Shown: positions 16,215 to 62,468 of the stretch, one piece after another
Position numbering within the stretch: the first letter of the stretch is position 1
How the letters are laid out: each line of letters begins with the position of its first letter
The notes under the pieces: generated by a model
What the model was told of the DNA's origin: nothing
Databases searched by the model: none
The model's input: the letters and a program-made list of their open reading frames with translations, nothing else
Assembly: GCF_014695575.1 (NCBI RefSeq)
Contig: NZ_JACJOO010000019.1
Location: 62,001-126,000, forward strand
DNA from: Leptolyngbya sp. FACHB-8
GTDB lineage: Bacteria > Cyanobacteriota > Cyanobacteriia > Elainellales > Elainellaceae
Reading direction: 5' to 3'
Length of the DNA: 64,000 nt
Program-made: the position numbers and the translations under genes

Positions 16215-16439
16215 ATGACATCCCTGCAACTGTTGGCCCAAGACCTGGGGGATATTCATTCACCTGTTAGTCAAAAAACTCGTCGTCCCTTAAAAACTCG
16301 CTGGCATTATGGGCGAGGTTATGTCGTCATTGCAGCGATCGCCCCTTTTGTTCTGATAAGTCTTTTGATGGTTCATCTACACTCACTGGGCCAGCAGTGG
16401 ACTAGCTCCCTGGAGCGCTGGGTTAGTGCCAAGCGGTGA
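16215..16439 (+). CDS. Small single-pass membrane protein
   Basis: 74 residues: a basic, soluble N-terminal half (about 1-34) with several Arg and Lys, then one hydrophobic segment (about 37-55, VVIAAIAPFVLISLLMVHLH) and a short tail. I do not recognise the family. It ends 34 bases before the TPR gene start, which suggests a two-gene unit. The upstream ribosome binding site (GAGAG) is weak. It could also be a non-functional frame; conservation would decide. Confidence 0.45.
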   Translation: MTSLQLLAQDLGDIHSPVSQKTRRPLKTRWHYGRGYVVIAAIAPFVLISLLMVHLHSLGQQWTSSLERWVSAKR

Positions 16440-16473
16440 GCGCCTCATCGTCGTAAACACATGGAATAAAGAC

Positions 16474-37193: not shown

Positions 37194-38154
37194 CTTCTAC
37201 CTCAACGGCGATATCTAAACGATGCAAATATTCCAGAGCTGAAGCAACATCGGCCCCCGAAAGTTCTAGTTGTAATTGCCCCACCGATTCGCCTCCAATG
37301 GTCTCGACGCTACCATTGAGAATGTTGACTTCTATGTCATATTGGCGAATCAATGTATTAATGATGGGTTGATTTGCAGTGGTGCCATTGAAGGCGATGG
37401 TCGCGAGCACGGTGCCGGGGTGAGGGTGATATTGCCGGCGTGGAAAAAAGTCTTGAGCGAGCCGTGAACTGGGTTGGGCTGCAAGATCTACAACGCGCCC
37501 CTGTTCAACCACTTTGCCGCGTTCTAGGATGGCAACGCGATCGCAAATATGTTTCACGACCCCCATATCGTGAGTAATCAGCAGAATCGTCAACCCCATC
37601 TGCTGGTTCAAGTTCTTCAGCAAATCTAAAATCGAACGCGTTGTTTGGGGATCAAGTGCGGAGGTCGCTTCATCGGATAGGAGCACTTTAGGATTCGCGG
37701 CTAGCGCACGCGCAATCCCCACCCGTTGCTTTTGTCCACCAGAAAGTTGTGCTGGGTAGTTATCCCCCTTTCCCTCTAAATCCACCAGGGAAAGTAGCTC
37801 CTCAACCCGTGCTTTCCGCTTGAGCCGACTGTATCCCATCACCTCCAGCGGCAAAGCAATGTTTTCAGCAGCAGTGCGACTACTCAGCAAATTGAAATGT
37901 TGAAAAATCATGCCAATGCGTCGCCGCGCTCGCCGTAAGTCAGGCCCCGAAAGCGCGGTAATATCCTGCCCATCGACCACAATGCTTCCCGAGGTGGGTT
38001 TTTCTAAGCGGTTGATGCAGCGAATCAGGGTACTTTTTCCCGCACCACTCTGACCGATCACGCCAAAAATCTCACCCTTAACGATGTCTTCACTGAAACT
38101 CTCCAGGGCGACAAAGGAACCATATTGTTTACGCAACTCGCGGATTGAAATCAT
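37150..38154 (-). CDS. metN: Methionine ABC transporter ATPase MetN
   Basis: About 334 residues. Walker A GQSGAGKST near 37, signature LSGGQKQR near 138, Walker B VLLSDEATSALD near 160, and a C-terminal NIL regulatory domain (about 255-325) that in MetN binds intracellular methionine and inhibits transport. The ATG at 38154 is preferred over a GTG at 38166. It lies downstream of metQ with a 241-base gap that includes a 16-bp-arm hairpin. Confidence 0.93.
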   Translation of the reverse strand: MISIRELRKQYGSFVALESFSEDIVKGEIFGVIGQSGAGKSTLIRCINRLEKPTSGSIVVDGQDITALSGPDLRRARRRIGMIFQHFNLLSSRTAAENIALPLEVMGYSRLKRKARVEELLSLVDLEGKGDNYPAQLSGGQKQRVGIARALAANPKVLLSDEATSALDPQTTRSILDLLKNLNQQMGLTILLITHDMGVVKHICDRVAILERGKVVEQGRVVDLAAQPSSRLAQDFFPRRQYHPHPGTVLATIAFNGTTANQPIINTLIRQYDIEVNILNGSVETIGGESVGQLQLELSGADVASALEYLHRLDIAVEVEDGRSASEQLVDSNT

Positions 38155-38343
38155 CGCTTTTTCCACTGGAAAAGACTTGCAAGAGATTGATTTTTCAACG
38201 CTTCTTATTTGATGGATATGAGGCTTGTGGGATGGGCATCTTGCCCGTCTACAAACAGGGCAGGTAAGACGCCCAACCCATAAGATTAGAACCCCTGAAG
38301 CTAATCACCTATTCATAGAATTAACGGTGAAATGATGATAGTT

Positions 38344-38380
38344 GTTGATTTTTCGTGTGTGATGCACACGAAAAATCAAC
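38344..38380. repeat. Perfect 16-bp-arm hairpin between metQ and metN
   Basis: Arms 38344-38359 and 38365-38380 pair around TGATG. It lies just after the metQ stop and may lower expression of metNI relative to metQ, as is common for binding-protein genes. Confidence 0.65.
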
Positions 38381-38395
38381 TCTTTCAATGCTTGC

Positions 38396-39277
38396 TTAAG
38401 CGGGAATAACAGCCCCTTGATATTTGTCCTGAATAAACTTTTTGGTCTCAGGCGATGTCAACAATGTTGCTAACTTCTGGATATTGGGATCTGTTTCTCG
38501 TCCCTTGATTACTGCCAGAATATTCGCATAGGGATTGCCTTCAGCCTTTTCTAACGCAAGGGCATCTTTTGTAGGATTTAAGCCTGTTTCAATGGCATAG
38601 TTGCCGTTGATGATGGCTAGTTCAACATCATCGAGGGCGCGGGGTAGCTGCGCGGCTTCTAACTCTACCAGTTTGATGTTTTTAGGGTTAGCTTCAACAT
38701 CCTGGGAAGTCGCTTCGACGCCAACACCGCTCTTGAGTTGCACGAGTTGGTTGTCTTGAAGGAGTTTGAGCGATCGCCCCAAATTTGTCGCATCATTGGG
38801 AACCGCTAACTGTGCCCCGTCACTTACTTCACTCAGGGACTTAATTTTACGAGAGTATAGGCCCAATGGTTCAATGTGAACGGGCACAACAGCTACCAAA
38901 TCTAATCCCCGTTCCTTCGCAAAGTCTTCCATATAAGGAACATGCTGGAAGAAGTTGGCATCCAATTGTTTGTCATTGAGTGCTAGATTGGGCTGCACAT
39001 AGTCGGTAAACTCAACAATTTCCAGGTCTAGCCCTTCGTTAGCGGCCAGGTTGTCTTTCACAAAACGAAGGATTTCAGCATGGGGTACGGGCGTCGCTCC
39101 CACCGTCAGCTTTGCCGATGCTGAAGAGGCACCTGAAGAGGTTTCGGAGGAGGCAGATTCAGAAGTGTTGGTGCCGCATCCGGCAAACAGAGTCGTTGCA
39201 GCGAAGGAACCTGCTGCAACCAGGAAAAAGCGGCGGTTCAGATGAGTCGAAATAGGGCTGTGAGATGGTGGTTTCAT
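38396..39277 (-). CDS. metQ: Methionine-binding lipoprotein MetQ
   Basis: About 293 residues. A signal peptide ends in the lipobox LFAGC, followed by a Ser/Thr/Ala/Glu-rich linker and an NLPA-type binding domain with VGATPVPHAEILRFVKD and a DANFFQHVPYMEDF ligand-site region. It delivers methionine (or methionine analogues) to MetNI. GAGG lies 5 bases before the ATG at 39277. After the lipid-bearing Cys the mature protein has no other Cys and only one Met. Confidence 0.92.
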   Translation of the reverse strand: MKPPSHSPISTHLNRRFFLVAAGSFAATTLFAGCGTNTSESASSETSSGASSASAKLTVGATPVPHAEILRFVKDNLAANEGLDLEIVEFTDYVQPNLALNDKQLDANFFQHVPYMEDFAKERGLDLVAVVPVHIEPLGLYSRKIKSLSEVSDGAQLAVPNDATNLGRSLKLLQDNQLVQLKSGVGVEATSQDVEANPKNIKLVELEAAQLPRALDDVELAIINGNYAIETGLNPTKDALALEKAEGNPYANILAVIKGRETDPNIQKLATLLTSPETKKFIQDKYQGAVIPA

Positions 39278-39632
39278 AATCCTCAATCTTGTGTTTTTGG
39301 GGTTGGCCATTGCGGTGAGGCACGAACTCCTGACAAACCAATCCACTAAAGCGGTGCAGAAACCTGACCTGCCAGTATATGAGGCTGACTTTGATGGCGT
39401 ATTGTCTGGGGGCGAGAAAGAGTTTTACTGGGAAATGGGGTAGGCGATCGCCGAATCTCCCCTAATCCTACCGGAAAACCATAGTTTATGACCTGATGTC
39501 GGTAATCCTGCGTTGCCGCTGTAACAATTCACATTGCTGTGTGTTAAGCAAGGGTGTGCAGCCCACCATACGAGGCAAATACAACCGTTGAAATCCCACT
39601 TTTGGGTGAGAAGGAGTAACCGATCGGGTTAA

Positions 39633-43411: not shown

Positions 43412-44632
43412 CTATAACCAGGGATGCCGAGGCGGATTGGTGCCGTTGAGGTAGTAGTTGCCGATGGCATAGTATTTCCAACGCACAGGGTCGTGTAGGG
43501 TGTGGGCACGGGCATTCCGCCAATGGCGATCGTAGTTGAACTGTTGTAGAGTCGATTTTGTACCAGCCAGTTCAAACAGCTTGTTGGTTGCCAGCAAGGA
43601 TGCTTCGGTTGCTAGAGCTTTCGCTTCTGCCACCGCAATGGAGGATTCGACCACTTTGGCCTCTTCCAATCCAGACTCATAGGCAGCATCAATCGCCAAT
43701 CCAGCACGGGTTAGCAAAGCTTCCGCTGCATGGACCTGGATAATAATGTTACCCAGGTTGTAGAGGGTGAGGTGATCTTCGTAGCCATGCTCCTGGTTGC
43801 TGTCGACCCAGGGGCGAGTGTGATTGCGGACGAAATAGAGCGTATCGCGCAGTGCTGCTTTCGCAATGCCCACATCAACTGCAGCCTGAATAATTTGAGC
43901 GACGGCACCCATTGGCGTCGCCCGCTCAAAGGCAAGGTAGTGGGGAATCACATGGTCTGCCTGCACCTTTACATTTTCGAGAATGGTAGTGCCGCTGGCG
44001 GTAGTGCGTTGCCCAAAGCTTGTCCAGTCGTCTAACAGCGTCAATCCTTCAGCACCTCGCTCGACGAAGGCAACGACGGTATTGCCGTCCTCATTGGCTG
44101 CAATGGTGGGAATCCAGTGGGCCAGCAGCGCACCAGCAGAGTAATACTTTCGGCCATTCAATACATAGCCGTCGCCTGATGGGGTCAGCTTGGTTTGCAC
44201 ATCGGTTACTGACTTGGTGCCAATTTCTGAAAAGGCATTACCAAACCGCTTGCCCTGAAGAACCAGGTCGAAGAAGAACTGCTTTTGTTCCTCAGTACCA
44301 TCCAGACGAATAGCTTCCACCATGTAGAGGTGGTTTTGGGGAATTTGACCCAGGCTGGAATCAGCTTCAGCGATAATTTTGATCACCTCGGCCAGGGTGG
44401 CATTGGAAACTCCTGCTCCACCATATTCTTTGGGTACGATGATGCCCCAAAGACCGCTCTGAGAAAACTTCTTCACTTCTTCGACGGGAAGGCGGCGATC
44501 GCGATCGCGCACCGAATCCTCCTTCGCAAACTCAGCGGCGAGTTCTTTGGCAATGGCGATCGCTTCTTCATCGCTCTGGATTACATGCGCTTTTGGCTCG
44601 GCACTGACATCAATAGGCAAAGTTGTTGTCAT
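43412..44632 (-). CDS. sfnB: SfnB family sulfur acquisition oxidoreductase (acyl-CoA dehydrogenase fold)
   Basis: About 406 residues. The acyl-CoA dehydrogenase/DszC-like fold is shown by PKEYGGAGVSNATLAEVIKI, GNAFSEIGTKSV, the YVLNGRKYYSAGALLAHWI segment and a C-terminal helical bundle ending QQFNYDRHWRNARAHTLHDP. The SfnB group of flavin oxidoreductases is induced by sulfur limitation and works with SfnG in dimethylsulfone/sulfonate use. The predicted protein has no Cys and only two internal Met. AAGGA precedes the ATG at 44632. It is second in the operon, 54 bases after sfnG. Confidence 0.92.
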   Translation of the reverse strand: MTTTLPIDVSAEPKAHVIQSDEEAIAIAKELAAEFAKEDSVRDRDRRLPVEEVKKFSQSGLWGIIVPKEYGGAGVSNATLAEVIKIIAEADSSLGQIPQNHLYMVEAIRLDGTEEQKQFFFDLVLQGKRFGNAFSEIGTKSVTDVQTKLTPSGDGYVLNGRKYYSAGALLAHWIPTIAANEDGNTVVAFVERGAEGLTLLDDWTSFGQRTTASGTTILENVKVQADHVIPHYLAFERATPMGAVAQIIQAAVDVGIAKAALRDTLYFVRNHTRPWVDSNQEHGYEDHLTLYNLGNIIIQVHAAEALLTRAGLAIDAAYESGLEEAKVVESSIAVAEAKALATEASLLATNKLFELAGTKSTLQQFNYDRHWRNARAHTLHDPVRWKYYAIGNYYLNGTNPPRHPWL

Positions 44633-44686
44633 AGGTGAATTGTCCTTATGTAGAGGATTCGATAGCAAAAGATGGATTAGTTGGGC

Positions 44687-45790
44687 TTACACAGTTACCA
44701 ACTCAGGTGCAGGCTGACGGCGATTTTCGAGCTGATGCACCAGCGGAATAACATCGCGACCAAAGGCAGGCAGGTCCTCGGTGTAGTGCAGGAAGCCACC
44801 CAGGATCAGGTCTACGCCTGCTTCATGAAACTGCTGGATCTTCTCGGCTACCTGTTCCTTCGTACCGATAAGACCGGAGCGGAAACCGTCGTTGTATTGC
44901 ACCAAGTCTTCAAAGCTAGAGTTGGCCCACATCCCGGTTTTGTCGCTGGTGGATGCGCCTGCTTCCTTTACGGCTTGTCCAAAGCCTTCAACCGCTTCAC
45001 GATCGGCCTGAGCGATAATTTCTCGCAGGACATCGTGGGCTTCTTTCTCGGTATCGCGCACAATGATGAAGGCGTTCAATCCAAACTTTGGTGGCACTGC
45101 ACGGCCTTCCAGTCGGGATAGAGCTTTGATGTCCTCAATCTGCTCCCGTGCGCCTTCCAGCGTGTTGCCATTCATGAAATACCAATCAGAAACGCGGGCA
45201 GCCATGCGGCGAGCAGCTTTGGAGTTACCTCCCTGGAAGATTTCGGGGTGGGGATTCTGGTTGACAGGGCGGGGCTTCACCCAACCACCATTAATGCGAT
45301 AAAAATCGCCTTTGAAGTGGAACTCATCTTCTGTCCACAAGCCTTTCAGCACCCGAATAAATTCTTCGGAACGGCGATAACGCTCGTCATGCTCCAACCA
45401 TGGCTCACCATAAATGGTAAATTCGCCCTTAAACCAGCCACTCACCACATTCAGGGCGAACCGACCCTTTGACAGGAAATCGATGGAAGCGCCAATTTTA
45501 GCGACAACACCGGGGTGCCACAGACCGGGGTGAACGGCGGCAATGAGCTTAAGTTTTTGGGTGACAGGAGCTAGAGCGGAAACGGTAGTGAGTGCTTCCA
45601 GTTGATACTCGGCTCCATAGCTGGCGATGAATCGTGCTTGGGCGAGAGCATACTCAAAGCCCACCTCTTCAGCGGTCTGTGCCAACCAGGCATTGTAGTC
45701 GTAAGTCCAATCTGTATTTTGTGGAATTTTGCTGACGACTAAGCCGCCACTGACATTGGGAACCCAATATGCAAACTTGACATCTACCAT
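44687..45790 (-). CDS. sfnG: FMNH2-dependent dimethylsulfone monooxygenase SfnG
   Basis: 367 residues, bacterial luciferase-like fold. Landmarks are MVDVKFAYWVPNVSGGLVVS at the start, IAAVHPGLWHPGVVAKIGAS, LNVVSGWFKGEFTIYGEPWL and HDERYRRSEEFIRVLKGLW, the last shared with SsuD-type monooxygenases. It converts dimethylsulfone to methanesulfinate with reduced FMN and oxygen; methanesulfinate or methanesulfonate can then be handled by an SsuD/MsuD-type enzyme. No Cys and three internal Met are seen. It is first in a four-gene minus-strand operon. Confidence 0.93.
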   Translation of the reverse strand: MVDVKFAYWVPNVSGGLVVSKIPQNTDWTYDYNAWLAQTAEEVGFEYALAQARFIASYGAEYQLEALTTVSALAPVTQKLKLIAAVHPGLWHPGVVAKIGASIDFLSKGRFALNVVSGWFKGEFTIYGEPWLEHDERYRRSEEFIRVLKGLWTEDEFHFKGDFYRINGGWVKPRPVNQNPHPEIFQGGNSKAARRMAARVSDWYFMNGNTLEGAREQIEDIKALSRLEGRAVPPKFGLNAFIIVRDTEKEAHDVLREIIAQADREAVEGFGQAVKEAGASTSDKTGMWANSSFEDLVQYNDGFRSGLIGTKEQVAEKIQQFHEAGVDLILGGFLHYTEDLPAFGRDVIPLVHQLENRRQPAPELVTV

Positions 45791-47546: not shown

Positions 47547-47972
47547 ATGGGCGAGATCAAGAAGGTCAGTGATCAGTTTTCCTCAGGCAGTCAGCCAAGT
47601 GTTGAGGCTTTGAAACAACTGGCGAATCAGGGATATAAGTCCGTGGTAAATTTGCGATCGCCGGGTGAAACCGGTAGTTTACCCGACGAGCAAGAACAGG
47701 CTGAAGCTAACAATTTGCAATATGCCAATATCCCCTTAAATCCAAACGAAGCGGATGAGAGCCTGACCGAAAAAGTACTGTCAGTGGTCGACGAATTACC
47801 AACTCCCATCTATTTCCATTGCGGAGCAGGAGCACGGGGCGGAGCTTTAGCGCTGATTGCCCTGGCAACTCAGCAACAATTAGGCCGTGAAGCCGTTATT
47901 GAAAAGGCAAAAGAATTGGAGATTAGTCTCGATCAGCCGCATCTCAAACAATTTTTGGAAAGCTTATCCTAA
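47547..47972 (+). CDS. BLH phosphatase-like (DUF442) protein
   Basis: 141 residues. The dual-specificity-phosphatase-like fold shows SSGSQPSVEALKQLANQGYK, VNLRSPGE, then HCGAGARGG with the Cys-X4-Arg P-loop near residue 92. DUF442 domains occur alone or fused to persulfide dioxygenases (Blh/ETHE1) that detoxify sulfide, and an ETHE1-type domain is encoded in this window at 53479-55767. The substrate may be a sulfur-group carrier more than a phosphoprotein. The protein has one Met (the initiator) and one Cys (catalytic). Confidence 0.85.
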   Translation: MGEIKKVSDQFSSGSQPSVEALKQLANQGYKSVVNLRSPGETGSLPDEQEQAEANNLQYANIPLNPNEADESLTEKVLSVVDELPTPIYFHCGAGARGGALALIALATQQQLGREAVIEKAKELEISLDQPHLKQFLESLS

Positions 47973-48080: not shown

Positions 48081-48914
48081 CTAAATTCCAGCACCGTCCA
48101 GAAAGTCTTGAATGAGGTGATCAGAGTTGGCGATCGCCCCCTTCCCATCCAAAACTTGATCAGTCATCGCCGTAGATTGTTGTAGCTGGTTAATCTGCTT
48201 TTCGAGTTGCTTCACCCGCTCAAACAGTAACCCGATTACTTCTGCTTCTAAGTCACGCTTGTATGGGTAGTCGGAATCTTCGGTGTGCAGGCCGCTATGC
48301 CGCACGATGCGGCCGGGTACCCCTACGACTGTGCTGTAGTCGGGTGTGTCGCGCAACACCACTGAGCCAGCACCAATTCGAACATGGCTTCCGATATCGA
48401 TATTCCCAAGAACTTTTGCACCCGCTCCTACAACAACATGATTGCCTAAAGTTGGATGGCGTTTGCCCCTCTCTTTACCCGTACCACCCAGAGTGGCTCC
48501 TTGATAGATCAAGCCGTAGTCACCAATGATGGCAGTTTCGCCAATAACAATGCCCATGCCATGGTCGATGACCATGCCTTTCCCAATAGTTGCGCCGGGA
48601 TGGATTTCAACCCCTGTCAGCCATCGGCTTAACTGAGAAATAAGGCGAGGCACGAGCGGAATATGAGCTCTATGTAATTTATGAGCAATGCGATGAAAAC
48701 AGAGGGCATGGAAGCCTGGATAACAAAGAAGGACTTCTAGCCAGTTTCGAGCCACAGGATCTCGTTGGAAAATAGCTCGAAAATCTGCTTGTAGAACGGT
48801 GAAAAAAGAATCTTTAGCTCGGTTCCGTGTAGATTTTGCACCGGGTATTTCCCTGGAAGGTTGAATTTGCGAATCAGTCTGAGATCTCTCCAGAGAGGAT
48901 TGGGCCTTTTCCAT
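48081..48914 (-). CDS. cysE: Serine O-acetyltransferase CysE
   Basis: About 277 residues. After a 45-residue low-complexity start come the helical SATase domain ([31 protein letters not shown]) and the left-handed beta helix of hexapeptide repeats with [20 protein letters not shown] and [19 protein letters not shown]. It makes O-acetylserine from serine and acetyl-CoA, the carbon acceptor for sulfide in cysteine synthesis. The C-terminal tail after the helix is long (about 60 residues) and forms a coiled coil. The ATG at 48914 is preferred over the open frame to 49016, with GGAAGC upstream. Confidence 0.92.
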
Positions 48915-49733
48915 AAAGCTTCCTTGTTTTCTACTTATAAGATTGACATGGAAACTTAAAAGTTGGGGAAAGAATGCCTTATGACAGTTAGTGATTAAAC
49001 TAAATTGGTTATTCAAATCACAAATGTTTTCAGAGGCACAATTGTAATGTTTATTTTATTAACGGCGATCGCCAAAATGTTTCTCTAAAGAACATTCAGA
49101 CGGATTGAAAATCCAAAGTCTCACAGCTTAAAACGCTGTGATTATAAGCTTTTGTATTTGCAGTCACAATGGTTACATAAAGTTGAAAGTGGGGAGCGAT
49201 CGCCCTTTTAATGATGAGATAACTCGAATAGTTTTTCTTATTAATTCAATCTATATCTTAGTGCAAGCTTATATTTTATTGAGTCATGATCTAGCCTATT
49301 GGAGTTTTTTCACCAGAAAAATTGATGATTTGTATACGGTGTACCAAAACATTCCGGTTCACTAATTGGAGGGAGGGAAGCTCATTAGTTGTATTAATCT
49401 TTTGAATTGAAACAGAATTTAAATTAGCGAAGCCTTCTAAACATTTTTTAATAGAAAGAAATGGGTCAGCATTGTAAAAATAGCTTGTGGGGATCAGAAA
49501 CAAGTTAGACATCACTAATCTCTGCTTTGTTTAATCGTTATTAAGCCTTTTCCCATTCCTTAAAACCTTATTTTCAGAAGTTGGATTAGTACTTCTGGCG
49601 ATTTGATGTGGAAAGATTCATGGGATTAATAAACCCCTTGTTTCTTAATGGCAGAAAGGCGATCCCCTCCCCTGCAAAAGTATTGGTTTAAATGCACCAT
49701 TACTAACCAAAAAAACGTTAGGAGATTACAATC
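48915..49733. promoter_or_regulatory. Upstream region of cysE and cpcBA
   Basis: About 820 bases without a clearly supported gene. A 74-codon minus-strand frame (49291-49515) and a plus-strand frame (49138-49365) show no recognisable protein. The last 220 bases are the likely cpcB promoter and leader; AGGAG at 49721 is the cpcB ribosome binding site. Confidence 0.45.
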
Positions 49734-50255
49734 ATGGTTCAAGATGCGTTTACTAAGGTTATTGCTCAAGCCGATGTTCGTGGCGCATATTTGAGCAACG
49801 AGCAGTTAGACGGGCTGATTAACCTGGTACGGGATGGTAACAAGCGGATTGACGCGGTAAACCGTATTTCCAGCAACTCCGCAGCCATTGTTGCGAACGC
49901 TGCTCGCAGCCTGTTTGCTGAGCAACCCCAGTTGATTGCACCCGGTGGCAATGCTTACACCAACCGCCGTGCAGCCGCTTGCCTGCGTGACCTGGAAATT
50001 ATCCTGCGCTACGTTACGTATGCTCTGTTCACAGGTGATGCCAGCGTTCTGGACGATCGCGCCCTCAATGGCTTACGGGAAACCTACCTGGCCCTTGGTG
50101 TTCCGGGTGGTTCCGTTGCAGCGGGTATCCAAAAGCTGAAGGAAGCCTCCATTGCCATTGTGAATGATACCAATAACATCACGCGCGGCGATTGCAGCTC
50201 TATTGTTTCTGAGTTAGCAACCTATTTTGATCGCGCATCTTCATCCGTTGGCTAA
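49734..50255 (+). CDS. cpcB: C-phycocyanin beta subunit, sulfur-depleted (Cpc3-like)
   Basis: 173 residues, full CpcB length. It has the [20 protein letters not shown] region with the Asn (73) normally methylated, and the bilin-attaching Cys83 (AACLRD) and Cys154 (GDCSS). These are the only two cysteines, and no methionine follows the initiator. In ordinary CpcB a third Cys lies in DRCLNGL; here it is DRALNGL (Ala110), and conserved Met positions are Ala or Leu ([13 protein letters not shown]). This is the pattern described for the sulfur-limitation phycocyanin Cpc3 of Calothrix PCC 7601. It is a light-harvesting subunit of phycobilisome rods. AGGAG lies 9 bases upstream. Confidence 0.95.
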
Positions 50256-50311
50256 TTCCTTTTAATTCCTCATTTACACACCATTAACTCGTTTTAGGAG
50301 ATCGTTGACCA

Positions 50312-50803
50312 ATGGCTAAGACCCCTTTGACCGAAGCTGTAACCTCTGCAGATTCCCAGGGTCGCTTCCTGAGCAGCACGGAGTTTCAAGTTGCATTTGG
50401 TCGGTTTCGGCAGGCGGCCGTTTCGCTGGAAGCGGCAAAGGCGCTTTCCGGTAAGGCCCAAAGCCTAGCGGAGGCAGCTGCCAACGCGGTATACCAGAAG
50501 TTCCCTTACACCACCCAGTTGCAGGGACCAAACTACGCTTCGGATGAGCGGGGCCGCGCGAAGTGCGTGCGGGACATCGGTTACTACCTGCGGATCATCA
50601 CCTACGCTCTGGTGGCAGGCGGTACCGGCCCCATCGATGATTACCTAGTAGCGGGTCTGTCAGAAATCAACAGCGCTTTTGAACTGTCTCCTAGCTGGTA
50701 TGTCGAAGCGCTCAAGTACATCAAAGGCAATCACGGTTTGTCTGGAGATGCAGCGGTTGAGCTGAACTCTTACATTGATTATGTGATCAATGCATTGAGC
50801 TAA
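50312..50803 (+). CDS. cpcA: C-phycocyanin alpha subunit, sulfur-depleted (Cpc3-like)
   Basis: 163 residues, full CpcA length. The bilin-attaching Cys85 ([13 protein letters not shown]) is the only cysteine and the initiator the only methionine. The rest matches CpcA closely ([56 protein letters not shown]). It pairs with CpcB in the (alpha-beta) hexamers of phycobilisome rods. The gene starts 56 bases after cpcB with TTAGGAG upstream. No linker, lyase or other cpc gene follows; a terminator does. Confidence 0.95.
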
Positions 50804-50948
50804 TCGCATCTCGGATTTCAAGTGGCGAACGCGTCCAACTCTTTGCGTAGAATGTTGAGTTGTTAAAGTTTTAGGTTACTCGTGGGTGATCTAATTTAAT
50901 AAATTAGCGGACTACGCAAGGGTTGTTTCTTCTTTCACTTAATTATTA

Positions 50949-50981
50949 GACACCCGGTGTTTCTAAAAATGCCGGGTGTCT
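50949..50981 (+). terminator. Terminator after cpcBA
   Basis: AGACACCCGG at 50949-50958 pairs with CCGGGTGTCT at 50972-50981, followed by TTGTCTTAG. It lies 145 bases after the cpcA stop and closes a two-gene operon. Confidence 0.7.
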
Positions 50982-51047: not shown

Positions 51048-51818
51048 TTAGCTTGCAGCTTGTCTCTGGTAATTGCGCAGAGTGACGCATATTAGGATGG
51101 CAATAACGGTTAGATAGATCCGTTGAATCCAGGCGTTACTCAGTTTGAGAGTGAGATTGGCTCCAATGAGGCCACCAACAAACATGGATGCTCCCAGAAT
51201 AACGCCTAACGGGTAGTCAACCATGCCTTGATGCATGAAGATAAGGGTCGCGATCAGAGAGGAGAAAACGTTGATGAGTTTGGTGGTAGCGATCGCCTCT
51301 ACAAATCTCATTCGAAATAACATGACGTAGGCGGCTGTCAATAACGTGACATAGCCTCCACTGAAGAAGCCGCCATAAATCCCCAGAAGAAATGTGACGA
51401 CATAGCCCGCAATGGCGGCAATACAAGGTGTTTGCCCTTCAACGGTTACGAGTCCGGCTTTCTGATTGATGACCGATAAAATTGACACCGCAATCATCGA
51501 TATCGATACAACGAGGGGAATCGATGTTGAAGGGATAATCAGTACCAATAATGCCCCCAGAATGGAACTGATGAGGGTTAAGCCGATTAATAAAGGAAGG
51601 CGTTTTGTATTGATGACTCCTTTGCCTATAAAGGGGAGTGTGCCGCCGATGCTCATGAAGGTGAGGGCGAACATATTGGTGGCGATCGCCGTCGAAGGCT
51701 CAACTCCAAAAACAAACATTATGGGAACGGTCACCAGAGATGTGCTTCCGGCAATGACACTGATGATGCTAGCGGCCAGAAAAATGGATGCGAGGAGAAG
51801 AATTTCTAGCGGAGTCAT
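51048..51818 (-). CDS. TSUP (TauE/SafE) family permease
   Basis: 256 residues, eight hydrophobic segments. SVIAGSTSLVTVPIMFVFG near the start and LGIYGGFFSGGYVTLLTAAY in the middle mark the two half-repeats. It is the fourth TSUP protein of the window, convergent with cpcBA. A sulfite, sulfoacetate or similar anion is the likely cargo, by family and neighbourhood. Confidence 0.9.
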   Translation of the reverse strand: MTPLEILLLASIFLAASIISVIAGSTSLVTVPIMFVFGVEPSTAIATNMFALTFMSIGGTLPFIGKGVINTKRLPLLIGLTLISSILGALLVLIIPSTSIPLVVSISMIAVSILSVINQKAGLVTVEGQTPCIAAIAGYVVTFLLGIYGGFFSGGYVTLLTAAYVMLFRMRFVEAIATTKLINVFSSLIATLIFMHQGMVDYPLGVILGASMFVGGLIGANLTLKLSNAWIQRIYLTVIAILICVTLRNYQRQAAS

Positions 51819-56665: not shown

Positions 56666-57727
56666 GTGCAGCGCAAACATCATCATCTATCGACATTTTC
56701 AGTGCCTCGCCTGTCACGGCGGCGATCGCTTCAAACTTTTGCTTACCTGTTTGTAACGGGTTTAGGGCTCAGTACAGCCACCGCAGGCTGTAGCCCAACC
56801 TCAGAGTCTTCTGCGCCTACTGCCAGCCCAGCGGCAACCTCGTCTCAGGACTCCGCCGCATCGGCTAAGACTCTACGAATTGGTTATCAAAAGTCGTCAA
56901 CAGCGTTGAATTTGCTTAAGACGAAGCAAAGTTTGGAGCCAAAGCTGGGTAAGGATGGCATTTCGGTCACGTGGAATGAATTCGCTGCTGGCCCACAAAT
57001 GTTAGAGGCTCTGAACGTTGGCAGTATTGATTTTGCCTACACCGGGGAGACCCCTCCTGTATTTGCCCAGGCTGCCGGAGCCCCGTTAGTGTATGTAGCC
57101 TATGAGCCAGTAGGCCCAGCGGCTGAAGCGATTCTCGTTCAAAGTGACTCACCGATTCAGTCGGTTGCCGAGCTAAAAGGTAAGCGTGTCGCCCTGAACA
57201 AAGGGTCGAACGTGCACTACCTGCTGGTGCGTGCGCTGGAGGAAGCCGGATTGAAGTATACCGACATTGAAGTTGCCTATTTGCCACCAGGAGATGCCCG
57301 TCCTGCGTTTGAGCAAAAGTCGGTCGATGCCTGGGTCATTTGGGATCCCTTCCAGGCTGCTGCAGAGACTGCTGTGAATGCGCGCATTCTTCAAGATGGG
57401 CAAGGTTTGGTGGAAAACCGAGGGTTTTTCCTATCGACGAAGTCATTCACAGAAAATAATCCGGCGATTGTGCGATCGCTCCTTGATGAGCTCAATACCA
57501 TCAGTGATTGGGCCAAGGCTAACCCCTCTGAAGTCAGTGCCTTCCTGAACAAAGAATTAGGGATTGATAAAGCCGCTCTTGATAAGGCCGAGAGTCGTCG
57601 CGGCTATGGCGTGAAACCCATGGATGCCACCGTTATTGAAGGCCAACAAAAAATCGCGGATACGTTTCTCGAGTTGAATCTGATTCCACAAAAAATTGAT
57701 ATAGCCAGTGTGATCTGGAATGGATAA
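56666..57727 (+). CDS. ssuA: Aliphatic sulfonate ABC transporter binding lipoprotein (SsuA 1)
   Basis: 353 residues starting at GTG, with GGGAGG 5 bases upstream. A twin-Arg-like SRRRS stretch and hydrophobic segment end in a lipobox (TATAGC); a Ser/Ala-rich linker leads to the NMT1/SsuA-type domain with LRIGYQKSSTALNLLK, ALNVGSIDFAYTGETPPVFA and GKRVALNKGSNVHYLLVRAL. It should bind alkanesulfonates in the periplasm for the SsuBC transporter. Mature sulfur content is the lipid-bearing Cys plus two Met. Confidence 0.92.
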   Translation: MQRKHHHLSTFSVPRLSRRRSLQTFAYLFVTGLGLSTATAGCSPTSESSAPTASPAATSSQDSAASAKTLRIGYQKSSTALNLLKTKQSLEPKLGKDGISVTWNEFAAGPQMLEALNVGSIDFAYTGETPPVFAQAAGAPLVYVAYEPVGPAAEAILVQSDSPIQSVAELKGKRVALNKGSNVHYLLVRALEEAGLKYTDIEVAYLPPGDARPAFEQKSVDAWVIWDPFQAAAETAVNARILQDGQGLVENRGFFLSTKSFTENNPAIVRSLLDELNTISDWAKANPSEVSAFLNKELGIDKAALDKAESRRGYGVKPMDATVIEGQQKIADTFLELNLIPQKIDIASVIWNG

Positions 57728-57739
57728 GGGTTATGAGTT

Positions 57740-57775
57740 GGCGTATTCTCATCATTTTTCTGGTGAAAATACGCC
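57740..57775. repeat. Short hairpin after ssuA 1
   Basis: GGCGTATT pairs with AATACGCC, 12 bases after the stop. It may partly terminate transcription. The remaining gap to 58074 has no supported gene. Confidence 0.45.
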
Positions 57776-58074
57776 ATTTCTAACCTATTCCAATCATGGC
57801 TAAAGTGGTGCACGGCACAGGGGAAGAGGGTAGCTGATGGGATGGGATGTTTATCTCATGGGTTCTACGTTTCGGTCTCCTATCCTGTGCCTTTTCTAAT
57901 GTTCCTGTGTGGTGTGGGGATGCTCTAATTCTCTGGCGGAATTGCTCTGGTGGGTTACGCCTGTAGGGCTGGATACTGCTCCCCATACCTTTCCTAATCA
58001 TTGGGTATTCATCTCGAATTGCTGGTGAAATTGTTCAAAATCTGGCTTTGATATTCTTTGAAGGTTTACATGAA

Positions 58075-59199
58075 ATGACGAGCCGAACTCTAGAGTCTGT
58101 TTTAAAGGGTGTTTTTTCGTCCATACGCACGAAAAAGCAACCCTTCCAGGCAGGCCTAAAACACGTCCTAGTTGATTGGCGCAAGCCAGGGATCATGCAG
58201 CGGTGGTTTCGCCCTCGATATGGGCGAGCGATCGCGCTATTTCTTGCTGGCCTTGCATTAAGTTTTGGGATGGCTGCCTGTGCGCCAACTCCTTCGACAT
58301 CAACGGCTTCACCAGAGGCATCTGCACCGCCATCTGATCGGGTTGTGCGGATTGGTCATCAGAAGTTTGATCCCTTCACGCTGGTCAAAGCGCGGGGAGG
58401 TCTAGAGGAACGCCTCAAGCCATTAGGCGTAACTGTGGAGTGGACTGAGTTTCAATCGGGGCCGCCGATGATGGAGGCCTTGAATGTTGGCAGCATCGAT
58501 ATCGGCCGGACCGGGGATACTCCTCCGGTCTTTGCCCAGGCCGCTGATGCGCCTCTCGTTTATATTGGCAGCGGTTCCCCCAAAGCTTCCTCCTCTGCCA
58601 TCGTGGTGCCCAAAGATTCACCCCTCAAAACAGTAGCCGACTTGAAAGGGAAGAAGGTGGGCTTCCAGAAGGGCTCTAGCGCCCACTATCTAACTGTGCA
58701 GGCTCTCAAGTCAGCCGGTCTGAAATGGGAAGACATTGAGCCCGTCAACCTGACGCCTGCGGATGCCCGCTCAGCATTTTCCCAGGGCGCAATTGATGCC
58801 TGGGGAATTTGGGACCCGTTCTATGCCGCGGCCGAAGCGCAACTGAATGCGAAAACCCTGATATTAAGCGAAGGATTGGCCGCCAATCGAGATTTTTATC
58901 TCGCGTCTAAAACCTTTGCTAACCAAAACGCTGATGTTATTGAGGCGATCGCTCAGGAAACCCGAGAAGTTTCTGAATGGGCCAGTGCGAATCCTGCTGA
59001 GGTGGTGAAGATTCTCTCGCCCATCTTGGGCATTGATCCGCCCATTCTGGATAAGGTGACTCGTCGGCGGGATTACACCTTTCAGGCCGTTAAGCCTGAG
59101 GTGATTGAAGAGCAGCAGGCGATCGCTGACACCTTCTTTGAACTGGGCTTGCTTCCTAAAGCATTGAAAGTGTCTGACATTGTTTGGCAGCCTTCTTAG
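58075..59199 (+). CDS. ssuA: Aliphatic sulfonate ABC transporter binding lipoprotein (SsuA 2)
   Basis: About 374 residues. A long basic N-terminus (about 55 residues) precedes the hydrophobic segment and lipobox (GMAAC). The binding domain closely resembles SsuA 1: VRIGHQKFDPFTLVKARGGL, ALNVGSIDIGRTGDTPPVFA and GKKVGFQKGSSAHYLTVQAL. The two probably arose by duplication and differ in sulfonate preference. AAGG lies 10 bases before the ATG at 58075. Confidence 0.92.
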   Translation: MTSRTLESVLKGVFSSIRTKKQPFQAGLKHVLVDWRKPGIMQRWFRPRYGRAIALFLAGLALSFGMAACAPTPSTSTASPEASAPPSDRVVRIGHQKFDPFTLVKARGGLEERLKPLGVTVEWTEFQSGPPMMEALNVGSIDIGRTGDTPPVFAQAADAPLVYIGSGSPKASSSAIVVPKDSPLKTVADLKGKKVGFQKGSSAHYLTVQALKSAGLKWEDIEPVNLTPADARSAFSQGAIDAWGIWDPFYAAAEAQLNAKTLILSEGLAANRDFYLASKTFANQNADVIEAIAQETREVSEWASANPAEVVKILSPILGIDPPILDKVTRRRDYTFQAVKPEVIEEQQAIADTFFELGLLPKALKVSDIVWQPS

Positions 59200-59347
59200 C
59201 GATTCACAGTTTGTTCTGAATTCTGGCTGTTTATCCTTCTCTCCTGACTGCGAGTGTCTTGTTCAATTCATTCATGATTCTGTGTGAATCAGAATCCTCG
59301 AAGTTGCACCCTTCTGTTCTATTTTTGATTTCAAGGAGCGCACAAGC

Positions 59348-60484
59348 ATGGATATCCTCTGGTTTATTCCAACCCATGGGGATGGTCGTTACCTGGGTAC
59401 CGCGACGGGTGGTCGGGCCATCACTCCCGAATACCTGCGTCAGTTGGCGGGGGCTGTAGACTCCCTCGGTTACGCCGGGGCTCTGCTGCCCACGGGAAAA
59501 TCCTGTGAGGATGCCTGGATCACGGCTGCATCGCTCATTCCCGTAACTCAGCGGATGAAGTTTTTGGTGGCGATTCGTCCCGGTATTTCCTCCCCGACCA
59601 TGGCGGCTCGGATGGCCGCTACCTTCGATCGCATTTCCCAGGGGCGCTTGCTTGTGAACGTAGTGACTGGGGGTGACCCGACCGAGTTAGCGGGAGATGG
59701 CTTACATCTGGATAAAACGGGTCGCTATGAAATCACTGATGAATTTCTCGCGATCTGGCGTGAGGTGATGCAGGGAGAAAGCGTTGATTTTGAGGGTAAA
59801 CACCTCAAGGTCAAGGGTGGAAAGTTGCTGTTTCCGCCTGTGCAAGATCCTTACCCGCCGTTGTATTTTGGTGGCTCATCGGCGATCGCTAAAGATGTCG
59901 CGGCTCGTCATGTAGACCTTTACCTCACGTGGGGTGAACCTCCCGCTCAGGTTGCAGAAAAAATTGCTGAAGTTCGTCAGCTTGCTGCTAAGTATGGTCG
60001 TACTTTGCGATTTGGGATTCGTCTTCATGTGATCGTGCGGGAAACCACAGCCAAAGCCTGGGATGCCGCCAACGACCTGATCCGTTATCTCGATGATGAA
60101 ACCATTGCTGCGGCTCAGGCTGCCCTCTCCCGCGCGGATTCTGAAGGGCAACAGCGTATGGTGGCTCTGCATGGGGGTAGCCGCGACCAGCTAGAAATTA
60201 GCCCTAACCTCTGGGCGGGTGTGGGCTTGGTGCGTGGTGGCGCAGGTACAGCGCTCGTAGGCGACCCCGATACGGTTGCTGAACGCATTCGCGAATATGC
60301 CGATCTGGGCATCGACACCTTTATTTTCTCGGGCTACCCCCATTTGGAGGAAGCCTATCGCTTTGCTGAACTGGTGTTCCCCAAACTGCCACTGACGGGG
60401 CTTCCGAAGGCAGCTCCCAGCCGCTATGTCAGCCCGATTGGCGAAATTATGGCTAATGACCGAGTTCCAACCAGTGCCAGCTAA
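59348..60484 (+). CDS. ssuD: FMNH2-dependent alkanesulfonate monooxygenase SsuD
   Basis: 378 residues, luciferase-like fold. It opens [20 protein letters not shown] and carries [23 protein letters not shown]-less [16 protein letters not shown] and [20 protein letters not shown], all typical of SsuD. It converts an alkanesulfonate to aldehyde and sulfite with oxygen and reduced FMN from SsuE. AAGGAG lies 10 bases upstream. It sits between two binding-protein genes. Confidence 0.95.
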
Positions 60485-60506
60485 AACTCTCCCTTGTATA
60501 ACTGCA

Positions 60507-61541
60507 ATGCGACGTATCCCTTACCTGCGACGATTTAACCCCTTCCGTCTACCCAAGTGGCTCCTGGCCATCACAGCCGTCTTTCTGTTTTCCATTGTGG
60601 GCGGTTGCTCACAGGATGCTGGCAATAGTGCCAGCAATGCTGCGAATCATCCCGATACCATTCGCGTTGACTTTGCCTACTACAACCCCGTTAGTCTGCT
60701 TCTGAAAGATAAAGGCTGGTTAGAGGAAGAACTGGGCAAAGACAATATCAAAGTTGAATGGACGCAGAGCCTTGGCAGTAACAAAGCCTTGGAACTGCTG
60801 AACAGCCGTAGTATTGATTTTGGCTCTACCGCTGGTGCCGCAGCTCTACTCGGTAAAGCGAATGGCAACCCTATCCAATCGGTTTATGTCTACTCGAAGC
60901 CCGAGTGGACAGCTCTGGTGACACGTCCTGACACCGGTATCACCAAAATTGAGGATTTGAAAGGTAAGCGAGTTGCGGCGACGAAAGGAACCGATCCCTA
61001 TATCTTTTTGTTGCGATCGCTCGATAGTGTAGGTCTTTCCGAAAAAGATATTGAACTGGTTCCCCTTCAGCATCCTGATGGTCGGGCAGCATTAGAACGG
61101 GGTGATGTGGATGCCTGGGCTGGCCTTGATCCCCACATGGCAAAAACCGAATTAGAAAACGGCTCCAAGCTGTTCTTCCGCAATGCGGATTGGAATACCT
61201 ACGGCATCCTCAACGTCCGTGAGGAATTTGCTAAAGAGTATCCCGCTGATGTGGAAAAGGTATTAGCGACTTACGAGAGAGCCCGTCAGTTCGCTGTCGA
61301 TAATCCCGACGAATTAAAGGCGATTTTAGTCCGAGAAGCAAAGCTGAGTGATACAGTGGCGGCTCGGCAGTTAGAACGGACTGACCTCTCTAATTCCGTC
61401 ATTGGTGACACCCAAAAGCAAACCATTTTGGCTGCTGGCGATATTCTCAAACGAGGCGGTGTGATTCCCAGCAATATTGACGTACAGCAGACTGTAGATG
61501 CTCTGATTGCACCGCAATTTGCAGAAAAGGTCGCCAAGTAA
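60507..61541 (+). CDS. Aliphatic sulfonate ABC transporter binding lipoprotein, third paralogue
   Basis: About 344 residues. The hydrophobic segment LLAITAVFLFSIVGGC ends in a lipobox. The domain has VDFAYYNPVSLLLKDKGWLE, SIDFGSTAGAAALLGKANGN and GKRVAATKGTDPYIFLLRSL. It is clearly in the SsuA superfamily but more distant from the other two and may bind another organosulfur acid. After the lipid-bearing Cys it has no further Cys and one Met. No ribosome binding site is obvious; the start at 60507 lies 22 bases after ssuD. Confidence 0.88.
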   Translation: MRRIPYLRRFNPFRLPKWLLAITAVFLFSIVGGCSQDAGNSASNAANHPDTIRVDFAYYNPVSLLLKDKGWLEEELGKDNIKVEWTQSLGSNKALELLNSRSIDFGSTAGAAALLGKANGNPIQSVYVYSKPEWTALVTRPDTGITKIEDLKGKRVAATKGTDPYIFLLRSLDSVGLSEKDIELVPLQHPDGRAALERGDVDAWAGLDPHMAKTELENGSKLFFRNADWNTYGILNVREEFAKEYPADVEKVLATYERARQFAVDNPDELKAILVREAKLSDTVAARQLERTDLSNSVIGDTQKQTILAAGDILKRGGVIPSNIDVQQTVDALIAPQFAEKVAK

Positions 61542-61562
61542 CATCTTCCAAACCCAGCCTCC

Positions 61563-62423
61563 ATGTCTTCCCTGCCGACTCCAGATTTGGATACTCGCAT
61601 CCCTCGTATTAAGGGAACACGGCGATCGCAATTGAAGGGCGATCGCCGCCCTTCCGCTCACCGCTGGCCCCTTGGCCTCGTGCTCCCGGTTGTTCTCACC
61701 CTCCTATGGGAACTGCTAGCTCGGGTCGGCATTCTCGCCCCCAACCTGATGCCTGCCCCAACCGTCGTTCTGGCCACCATCGTTGATCTCGCTGTTCGGG
61801 GTGAACTGTGGCAGCACATCGGCATTACGCTTTATCGGGTGTTGTTGGGCTTTCTAATCGGTGGTTCTGCTGCTACCGTTCTGGGTGCGCTCACGGGCTA
61901 TTTCCCCAAGGTCCGTCGCATCCTCGACCCCACTCTCCAGGCTTTGCGGAATATCCCCTCGATCGCCTGGGTGCCTCTATTCATCCTCTGGCTCGGCATT
62001 TACGAACCCTCAAAGATTGCCCTCATTGCCGTTGGCGTCTTCTTTCCCATCTACCTCAACTTAATGACGGGCATCCAACAGGTAGACCGGAAATTGGTGG
62101 AGGTGGGGCGCGTCTATCGCCTTAGCCAATGGCAACTGATCTGGCGTGTCTTCCTGCCAGCCACCTTGCCCTCCTACCTGGTGGGCTTACGGGGTGGCCT
62201 TGGCCTGGGCTGGATGTTCGTGGTTGCTGCCGAACTTATGGGAGCCAGCCGTGGTCTTGGTTTTCTTCTCGTCGATGGTCAAACGACGGGACGCCCCGCC
62301 ATCATTATTGCCAGCATCATTCTGTTCGCCATTCTCGGCAAACTCACTGACTCTGCCCTCGCTGTCCTGACCCATCACCTTCTGAGCTGGCAAGACACCC
62401 ACGGTTCTGAAAAATCTTCCTAA
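61563..62423 (+). CDS. ssuC: Sulfonate ABC transporter permease SsuC
   Basis: 286 residues, about six hydrophobic helices after a 40-residue basic cytoplasmic start. It has the permease loop VGRVYRLSQWQLIWRVFLPA and GGLGLGWMFVVAAELMGASR, typical of SsuC/TauC. It forms the membrane channel for sulfonate uptake. It starts 21 bases after the third binding-protein gene. No Cys is present. Confidence 0.93.
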   Translation: MSSLPTPDLDTRIPRIKGTRRSQLKGDRRPSAHRWPLGLVLPVVLTLLWELLARVGILAPNLMPAPTVVLATIVDLAVRGELWQHIGITLYRVLLGFLIGGSAATVLGALTGYFPKVRRILDPTLQALRNIPSIAWVPLFILWLGIYEPSKIALIAVGVFFPIYLNLMTGIQQVDRKLVEVGRVYRLSQWQLIWRVFLPATLPSYLVGLRGGLGLGWMFVVAAELMGASRGLGFLLVDGQTTGRPAIIIASIILFAILGKLTDSALAVLTHHLLSWQDTHGSEKSS

Positions 62424-62468
62424 CTCCCCCGCGTTCTCCATTTTGCCTCCTTTGCACCTCTGTCACCC

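What the first reader, a model, noticed from the sequence alone, without database searches (positions are those of the whole stretch)
49734..50803. Sulfur-depleted phycocyanin (Cpc3-like) encoded inside a sulfur-scavenging island
Seen: CpcB and CpcA together have only three Cys (the bilin-attaching ones) and no Met beyond the two initiators; the usual CpcB Cys in DRCLNGL is Ala. Known: Calothrix PCC 7601 makes such a phycocyanin (Cpc3) under sulfur limitation (Mazel and Marliere, Nature 1989). New here: the genes lie between cysE and a TSUP permease, amid sulfonate, sulfone and methionine acquisition genes, so light-harvesting remodelling and sulfur scavenging may be one physically linked regulon.
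Basis: partly seen in the sequence, partly recalled or inferred. Interest (0 to 1): 0.85.

Follow-up and report, generated by a model that had tools for sequence, protein, structure and literature searches.

The report
Sulfur-sparing phycocyanin among sulfur genes
This cyanobacterium carries, besides two ordinary versions, a spare blue light-harvesting protein stripped of almost all its sulfur, and in many cyanobacteria the genes for this spare version sit near genes for gathering sulfur, which suggests the two were selected together for life with little sulfur.

Summary
CpcB (49734-50255) and CpcA (50312-50803) keep only the three bilin cysteines and no methionine beyond the initiators. The genome has two conventional cpcBA pairs with 14 and 15 non-initiator Cys+Met. 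This is a Cpc3-type, sulfur-sparing phycocyanin, a known kind, here without adjacent linkers.
The linkage to sulfur genes is not an oddity of this window. Sulfur uptake or assimilation markers lie in the held flank (at most 10 kb a side) of 18 of 28 related Cpc3 loci against 2 of 57 ordinary cpcBA loci. A sulfate-binding protein gene lies within 10 kb of 6 of 17 Cpc3 copies against 0 of 27 other CpcB copies of the same genomes, about 0.12 expected. A Cpc3 on a Kovacikia plasmid again has cysK nearby.
'One regulon' is not shown. cpcB3 has its own cpc-type promoter element, and no other place in the window carries it.
Side result: a second, probably independent sulfur-poor phycocyanin in Nostoc, where it is the only CpcB found. 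Expression was not testable.

The parts
49734..50255 (+). cpcB3: beta-phycocyanin with 2 Cys (bilin sites) and no internal Met
   Evidence: (TIGR01339, 289.6 bits, cut-off 279.3)
50312..50803 (+). cpcA3: alpha-phycocyanin with 1 Cys (bilin site) and no internal Met
   Evidence: (TIGR01338, 289.9 bits, cut-off 269.45)
49437..49482 (+). conserved promoter-like element CTAAACATTTTTTAATAGAAA-N14-TTGTAAAAATA, beginning 297 bp before the cpcB3 ATG
   Evidence: matrix trained without the window scores it 49.6, best of four random 64-kb nulls 2.6
50948..50981 (+). terminator-like hairpin (15 pairs) after cpcA3
   Evidence: consensus scan only; 5 such sites found in the region, 2.4 expected in shuffles
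48081..49016 (-). cysE, serine acetyltransferase, divergent from cpcB3
   Evidence: TIGR01172, 237.1 bits, cut-off 210.65
51048..51818 (-). TSUP-like permease, convergent with cpcA3
   Evidence: PRK10621 family, 78.6 bits, below cut-off 383; TSUP name recalled
47547..47972 (+). small BLH-phosphatase / sulfur-transferase-like protein; homologues also near cpc3 in L020 and L167
   Evidence: below the NCBIfam cut-offs
43412..44668 (-). sfnB, sulfur acquisition oxidoreductase
   Evidence: TIGR04022, above cut-off
44687..45790 (-). sfnG, dimethylsulfone monooxygenase
   Evidence: TIGR04021, above cut-off
36540..39346 (-). metI, metN, metQ: methionine ABC transporter
   Evidence: MetI above cut-off; MetN and MetQ best family but below
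56666..63215 (+). sulfonate-type cluster: three NMT1-family binding proteins, luciferase-family monooxygenase (70% identical to the L036 protein that passes the SsuD cut-off), permease; the last gene (62469-63215) is taken as the ATPase by position, no family search
20282..21193 (+). taurine-dioxygenase-like protein (0 Cys, 1 internal Met in 303 aa)
   Evidence: (274.2 bits, cut-off 313)
32885..33850 (+). LysR-family regulator, candidate controller of the sulfur genes; a 54% identical partial relative lies at the Cpc3 locus L036

Best explanation
cpcB3A3 encodes a conditional, sulfur-sparing phycocyanin of the Cpc3 type. When sulfur is scarce the cell would make this version in place of the two conventional ones (inferred), saving 11-12 sulfur atoms per alpha-beta pair (shown from sequence), while neighbouring genes fetch sulfonates, sulfones and methionine (inferred from families). 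The pair looks like its own transcription unit with a modified cpc-type promoter, and uses rod linkers made elsewhere (inferred; candidates are two sulfur-poor linkers on contig C80). It lies in a sulfur island because the two functions are selected together: in this clade the gene pair is repeatedly found in sulfur gene neighbourhoods of different make-up. Physical linkage is shown; shared regulation is not.
For: Cys/Met counts against own and foreign normal copies. Two conventional cpcBA copies elsewhere; 20 of 20 other main-clade genomes tested, some of them near relatives, have two to four CpcB at E 1e-60. Cpc3 clade of 24 rows, support 100/100 with all columns and 97/96 with every Cys/Met column removed. 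Sulfur markers in the held flank: 12 of 24 Cpc3-class against 0 of 49 normal loci with markers from the window only; 18 of 28 against 2 of 57 with a wider set. Sulfate-binding protein within 10 kb: 6 of 17 Cpc3 copies against 0 of 27 other CpcB copies of the same genomes, 0.12 expected, P about 1e-9 for random placement. NCBIfam confirms neighbours in other loci above cut-off: SsuD, SbpA, CysT, CysK, NtaA/DmoA family. Found afterwards in another collection: Kovacikia minuta plasmid pA, Cpc3 with cysK and a BLH-like gene. Linkers in the main-clade Cpc3 operons counted have 0 Cys and 0-1 internal Met, and the CpcD-like proteins read in L023, L032, L034, L035 have 0 Cys and 0 internal Met.
Against: No expression data. 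5 of 17 hand-collapsed Cpc3 lineages show no marker, and the window's own genome has no sulfate-binding gene near cpc3. The marker set was partly drawn from Cpc3 loci. In one search one of the 12 (L021) rests on a 23% match to SfnB that is not seen at the stricter limit, where L021 counts through SbpA instead. The promoter element is at no sulfur gene of the window, is absent from three Cpc3 loci (L028, L036, L037), and in some Cpc3 loci scores no higher than ordinary cpcB promoters. No sulfur-free linker lies beside cpcA3 here, and the C80 linkers do not group clearly with Cpc3 linkers. The other member of the genus found (G443) shows no Cpc3-type CpcA at E 1e-80, so the gene is patchy.
Confidence: 0.82

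Rival explanations
1. One regulon: cpcB3A3 and the neighbouring sulfur genes are switched on by one sulfur-starvation regulator (for example the LysR protein at 32885) through a common operator.
For: Recurrent linkage; a LysR relative (54%) also lies at the L036 Cpc3 locus with ssu genes; several sulfur-uptake proteins of the window are themselves poor in Cys and Met.
Against: cpcB3 keeps a cpc-type promoter; no other place in the window carries its element; no second site in 17 loci apart from ordinary cpcB promoters. Another operator could have been missed: my search was for enriched words and dyads upstream of cpcB only.
Confidence: 0.35
2. Neutral hitch-hiking: Cpc3 is an accessory, horizontally moving gene pair that landed in gene islands rich in accessory uptake genes, with no functional link to sulfur.
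For: Patchy distribution (only G000 and G420 of 36 family genomes show a match from residue 1); a plasmid copy; mixed taxonomy in the Cpc3 clade.
Against: The sulfate-binding gene, 1-4 copies per genome above cut-off, is near 6 of 17 Cpc3 copies with 0.12 expected and near none of 27 other CpcB copies. The residue pattern itself is a sulfur pattern. Enrichment of non-sulfur uptake genes was not tested.
Confidence: 0.06
3. Loss of Cys and Met protects against oxidation or thiol chemistry rather than saving sulfur.
For: Met and Cys are the oxidisable residues (general knowledge); the Nostoc sulfur-poor version is the only CpcB found in its genomes, which fits a permanent stress adaptation at least there.
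Against: In the main clade the sulfur-poor form is an extra copy lying among sulfur genes, and Tolypothrix PCC 7601 makes sulfur-depleted antenna proteins at low sulfate (PMC4424289, passage).
Confidence: 0.1

Closest known systems
Cpc3 phycocyanin of Calothrix / Tolypothrix / Fremyella PCC 7601 (Mazel and Marliere 1989; Gutu et al. 2011)
   Same: Phycocyanin without dispensable Cys and Met, as an extra cpcBA beside conventional ones (details recalled). PMC4424289 (passage) says that strain acclimates to low sulfate by making antenna proteins depleted in sulfur amino acids; the two primary papers were not read, only their reference entries seen.
   Different: Here no linkers lie beside cpcBA (Calothrix cpc3 is recalled as cpcB3A3H3I3D3; relatives with linkers after cpcBA were found). 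Its placement among sulfur genes I have not seen described (searches).
Sulfur-poor sulfur-acquisition proteins (cost-saving in assimilatory enzymes; Baudouin-Cornu et al. 2001, recalled, not read)
   Same: Several window sulfur-uptake proteins are poor in Cys+Met, e.g. TauD-like 0.33%, SfnB 0.72%, SfnG 0.82%.
   Different: Those are uptake enzymes; phycocyanin is a bulk light-harvesting protein.
Conventional cpcBA operons with rod linkers (contig C30 in this genome)
   Same: Family, bilin Cys, gene order B-A; related promoter architecture in many ordinary cpcB genes, though not at this genome's own C30 and C16 copies (full matrix -1.1 and -1.7).
   Different: 14-15 non-initiator Cys+Met in the own copies; two rod linkers adjacent in C30; no sulfur marker found in the held flank of 55 of 57 normal loci.

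Membership tests
Cpc3-type sulfur-sparing phycocyanin | Alpha and beta C-phycocyanin subunits | tested here: met
   both above NCBIfam cut-offs.
Cpc3-type sulfur-sparing phycocyanin | Only bilin-attaching Cys kept and no internal Met | tested here: met
Cpc3-type sulfur-sparing phycocyanin | Additional copy beside conventional cpcBA in the same genome | tested here: met
   three cpcBA pairs.
Cpc3-type sulfur-sparing phycocyanin | Sulfur-free rod linkers in the same operon | tested here: not met
   No linker near 50803; hairpin at 50948. I take this as a feature of the Calothrix operon (recalled), not of the subunit class: several clade members also show no adjacent linker (L020, L021, L022, L027, L028, L030, L036, L037; L134-L137). 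Two sulfur-poor linkers (0 Cys, 1 internal Met each) lie on contig C80.
Cpc3-type sulfur-sparing phycocyanin | Common descent with other Cpc3-class CpcBA | tested here: met
   24-row clade 100/100, and 97/96 without Cys/Met columns; the four Nostoc rows of the class fall outside it.
Cpc3-type sulfur-sparing phycocyanin | Orthology to the sequenced Calothrix PCC 7601 cpc3 | not tested
   The PCC 7601 sequence was not among the loci listed.
Cpc3-type sulfur-sparing phycocyanin | Expression on sulfur limitation only | not testable with these tools
   No expression data held.
Single regulon with the neighbouring sulfur genes | Shared cis-element or shared transcript | tested here: inconclusive
   Separate unit by gene order and hairpin; the one conserved cpcB3 promoter element is at no sulfur gene of the window; other operators not excluded.
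Single regulon with the neighbouring sulfur genes | Co-induction by sulfur starvation | not testable with these tools
   Needs RNA measurements.

The most novel reading that the evidence does not exclude
Cyanobacteria have spared sulfur in phycocyanin at least twice by two different routes. In the main Cpc3 clade an extra, partly mobile gene pair moves in and out of sulfur-acquisition islands and is used on demand. In a Nostoc lineage the only phycocyanin of the genome has been purged of Met and dispensable Cys step by step, a permanent economy with living intermediates.
Probability: 0.55. Interest if true: 0.72.

Novelty: new variant of a known kind. Interest (0 to 1): 0.66.

Why it matters
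Phycocyanin is (recalled) one of the most abundant proteins of a cyanobacterial cell, so its sulfur content is a large budget item. The standard sulfur-sparing example, as far as I know, rests on one strain. Here the trait is tied, across many lineages and with within-genome controls, to the genes that gather sulfur, so that gene neighbourhood may predict the condition of use. The Nostoc series, with the depleted form as the only CpcB found, would make the cost and benefit of sulfur sparing testable by comparing living strains.

Tried and rejected
A shared operator between cpcB3 and the sulfur genes: words and dyads enriched upstream of Cpc3 cpcB genes gave a ribosome-binding site and the cpc-type promoter element. 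That element turned out to be a variant of an arrangement seen at many ordinary cpcB genes, so I dropped the first idea that it marks a sulfur regulon. A structured 5' leader: no consensus structure in 13 leaders; no Rfam match in 32000-64000. A detached Cpc3 linker operon on C80: the linkers are sulfur-poor, but their tree position is unresolved and the neighbours scanned are not sulfur genes, so it stays a candidate. One origin for all sulfur-poor phycocyanins: the first tree said one clade (SH-aLRT 97); removing Cys/Met columns and adding L142 and others (both column sets) moved L042, L084, L095, L142 to Nostoc, but the AU test did not reject one clade (p 0.373) and 18-19% of bootstrap trees keep one. 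Sulfonate-type markers alone understated the linkage: sulfate transport and cysK were added after looking at Cpc3 loci.

Full report
What is there. The window (G000, contig C11, 62001-126000; 6.93 Mb, 95 contigs, 99.5% complete) holds cpcB at 49734-50255 and cpcA at 50312-50803, both + strand. CpcB has two Cys and CpcA one, and neither has a Met after the initiator. The same genome has two further cpcBA pairs: on C30 (CpcB 3 Cys + 6 internal Met, CpcA 2 + 4, followed by two rod linkers) and on C16 (3 + 6, 2 + 3, no linker seen adjacent). So the window pair saves 11-12 sulfur atoms per alpha-beta unit.

Class and descent. Among the 80 loci kept of 362 related ones found with CpcB, 24 are of this class (0 internal Met; 3 Cys in all, L095 4; L034 judged on CpcB alone because its CpcA was not paired in my extraction), 7 Nostoc loci are intermediate and 49 are ordinary. 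In the rows used for trees, non-initiator Cys+Met is 3-4 in 28, 6-7 in 7 and 9-17 in 51 (the classes were defined by these counts). With all alignment columns, 24 rows (the window, 20 of the loci, L134, L140, L141) form one clade at 100/100; with all 24 columns that ever hold Cys or Met removed it stands at 97/96. Left out of the trees: one divergent normal row (L039_12387), rows of 320 residues or fewer, L034, and most near copies of L134. Of 386 genomes drawn evenly from the phylum, 16 had a CpcA at E 1e-84, ordinary ones included; 10 of these (the own genome, and nine whose loci L134-L142 I counted) carry the class, one of them (G068) of the Nostoc type. That is a lower bound.

Linkage. With markers taken from the window alone (SfnB, SfnG, SsuD, SsuA, TauD, MetQ; blastp 1e-8) a marker lies in the held flank (at most 10 kb a side) of 12 of 24 Cpc3-class loci, 0 of 7 intermediate and 0 of 49 ordinary loci (Fisher 1.5e-7, not corrected for kinship; L021 counts there through a 23% match). 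With sulfate transport, cysK, cysE, rhodanese and DMS-monooxygenase-type proteins added, a limit of 1e-15 and the window left out, it is 18 of 28 main-clade loci, 1 of 4 Nostoc loci, 0 of 7 intermediate, 2 of 57 ordinary loci (SbpA at L080; a 25% rhodanese match at L145). The added references came partly from Cpc3 loci, which favours the result. Collapsing near relatives by hand gives 12 of 17 lineages, the window included, with a marker; without: the L031/L035/L040/L041 group, the L038/L140/L141 group, L027, L029, L034. TSUP-like permeases were not counted; homologues lie at L035 and L037, 2 of 29 Cpc3 loci against 0 of 63 others. NCBIfam names above cut-off: SsuD (L036), NtaA/DmoA family (L020, L025, L028, L037), SbpA (L021, L022, L037, L045, L134), CysT (L045), CysK (L045, L134, L167); TauD-like proteins (L020, L028, L030) score below that model's cut-off, and the TauD-like protein of L023 gave no match at the strict limit used.

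Two genome-wide nulls. NMT1-family genes number 3-27 per genome in 20 genomes; 7 of the 20 loci have an SsuA homologue in the flank against 0.68 expected, 5 of 15 after dropping near relatives against 0.50 expected, P about 8e-5. Sulfate-binding protein genes (TIGR00971, 1-4 per genome above cut-off) lie within 10 kb of 6 of 17 Cpc3 copies, 0.12 expected, P about 1e-9 under random placement, and of 0 of 27 other CpcB copies in the same 17 genomes (Fisher 0.0018). The 17 are the own genome, G095, G340 and 14 of the 20 genomes (five near relatives and one Nostoc left out). The own genome is among the 11 without one. A later look in the plasmid collection gave two hits; one, Kovacikia minuta CCNUW1 plasmid pA (1.2 Mb), holds CpcB with 2 Cys / 0 internal Met and CpcA 1 / 0, with cysK 1.3 kb and a BLH-like gene 0.8 kb upstream. 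The other (Pseudanabaena PCC 7367) was not examined.

Promoter. In 13 of 16 non-redundant main-clade loci an element, CTAAACATTTnTTAATAAAAA-N14-TTGTA(A/T)AAA in consensus, lies 265-341 bp before cpcB when sought at 250-345 bp (weakest in L021 and L035, 11 of 16 letters; missing in L028, L036, L037). A matrix trained without the window gives the window site 49.6 bits, with 1.7 the next best place in 64 kb and 2.6 the best of four random nulls. Many ordinary cpcB genes have a related arrangement (nnTAATAATTTGTAATAAA-N14-TTGTATAAA) with full scores up to 32.6, mostly without the CTAAACAT half; the own C30 copy has a near match to the first half only. In loci not used for training, L137, L140, L141 and L167 score 34.2-44.1, above every ordinary promoter scored, but L134, L135 and L138 score 19.7-29.2, inside the ordinary range, as do the trained locus L035 and its relative L041 (28.4 and 21.5); L140 and L141 are close kin of the trained L038. 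No other place in the window and no second place in 17 Cpc3 loci carries it, apart from ordinary cpcB promoters in L029 and L034. So cpcB3 appears to be under a cpc-type promoter of its own. A common regulator for cpc3 and sulfur genes is not excluded, but I found no sign of it.

Linkers. The rod linkers counted in main-clade Cpc3 operons (L023, L025, L032, L034, L035, L041, L045, L140, L141) have 0 Cys and 0-1 internal Met, and the CpcD-like proteins (name recalled) of L023, L032, L034 and L035 have none of either. The window pair has no linker beside it. Of the other rod linkers in the genome, a tandem pair on C80 has 0 Cys and 1 internal Met each (C30 pair: 1 + 5 and 0 + 3); whether it serves CpcB3A3 is open.

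A second route. L042, L084, L095 and L142 carry equally depleted CpcBA (L095 keeps the third CpcB Cys), but in both trees they nest in Nostoc with intermediates of 6-7 Cys+Met, and linkers of L042 and L084 sit among Nostoc linkers on starred branches (L142's linkers were not in that tree). All four genomes have one CpcB at E 1e-60, as do the two intermediate genomes tested, whereas 20 of 20 main-clade genomes have two to four. G068 (L142) is 99% complete in five contigs, so a missed copy is unlikely there; the other three are drafts or MAGs. One of the four (L084) has an SsuA homologue in the flank. One clade for all is not rejected by the AU test (p 0.373, before L142 was added). I read this as probable convergence: an extra copy in one case, a permanent change in the other. 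That the remaining CpcB copies of main-clade genomes are conventional was checked by counts only where I held them (own genome and the normal copies at L029, L034, L047, L074, L075, L140, L141, L146).

Sulfur content of the neighbours. Of the window's own proteins, TauD-like, SfnB, SfnG, SsuA1, BLH-like, DUF202 and two neighbours of SfnB (41342-42349, 42572-43372) have under 1% Cys+Met; 12 sulfur-uptake proteins are lower than 18 others (Mann-Whitney P 5e-4; grouping made afterwards; TSUP-like, CadD-like, CysE, BLH-like, the two neighbours of SfnB and CpcBA left out). CysE and the permease next to cpcBA are not depleted.

Literature. I found no primary paper on Cpc3 in the library. PMC4424289 (passages) states that Tolypothrix PCC 7601 acclimates to low sulfate by making antenna proteins depleted in sulfur amino acids and cites Mazel and Marliere 1989 and Gutu et al. 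2011; PMC12269360 (passages) repeats the point, citing Mazel and Marliere. The other papers were seen as search listings only; none of those listings bore on the sulfur-gene linkage or on a sulfur-poor Nostoc phycocyanin. The library lacks most subscription journals.

Noticed in passing
L042, L084, L095, L142 (Nostoc lineage); L033, L043, L051, L053, L061, L066, L087: Sulfur-poor CpcBA that is the only CpcB found in its genome (first four), with close relatives holding an intermediate count of Cys and Met; probably a second origin.
   Followed up: partly
L167 (Kovacikia minuta plasmid pA, 97702-118202): A Cpc3-type cpcBA on a 1.2 Mb plasmid, near cysK and a BLH-like sulfur-transferase gene.
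   Followed up: partly
L112 8059-8925 and 9008-9823 (G000 contig C80): Tandem rod linkers with 0 Cys and 1 internal Met each, beside a CpcG-like gene and with no cpcBA on the fetched stretch; candidate partners of CpcB3A3.
   Followed up: partly
41342-42349 and 42572-43372: A protein without NCBIfam or Pfam match and an isochorismatase-like protein between SfnB and RibBA, both under 1% Cys+Met; candidates for sulfur-starvation genes.
   Followed up: no
16426-17754, 18007-18834, 28625-29281: orf16426 (no Pfam match), a PhnD-like binding protein and a CadD-like transporter recur near Cpc3 in other genomes (3, 2 and 2 of 24) and near none of 49 normal loci; CadD also near 1 of 7 intermediate loci.
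   Followed up: no
about 280-330 bp upstream of many ordinary cpcB genes (e.g. L055, L065, L068): A conserved cpc promoter arrangement, nnTAATAATTTGTAATAAA-N14-TTGTATAAA, shared by ordinary and Cpc3 operons.
   Followed up: partly
family f1 genomes: A Cpc3-type CpcA (judged by a match from residue 1) is seen only in G000 and G420 of 36 family genomes and not in the same-genus G443: patchy gain, loss or transfer.
   Followed up: no
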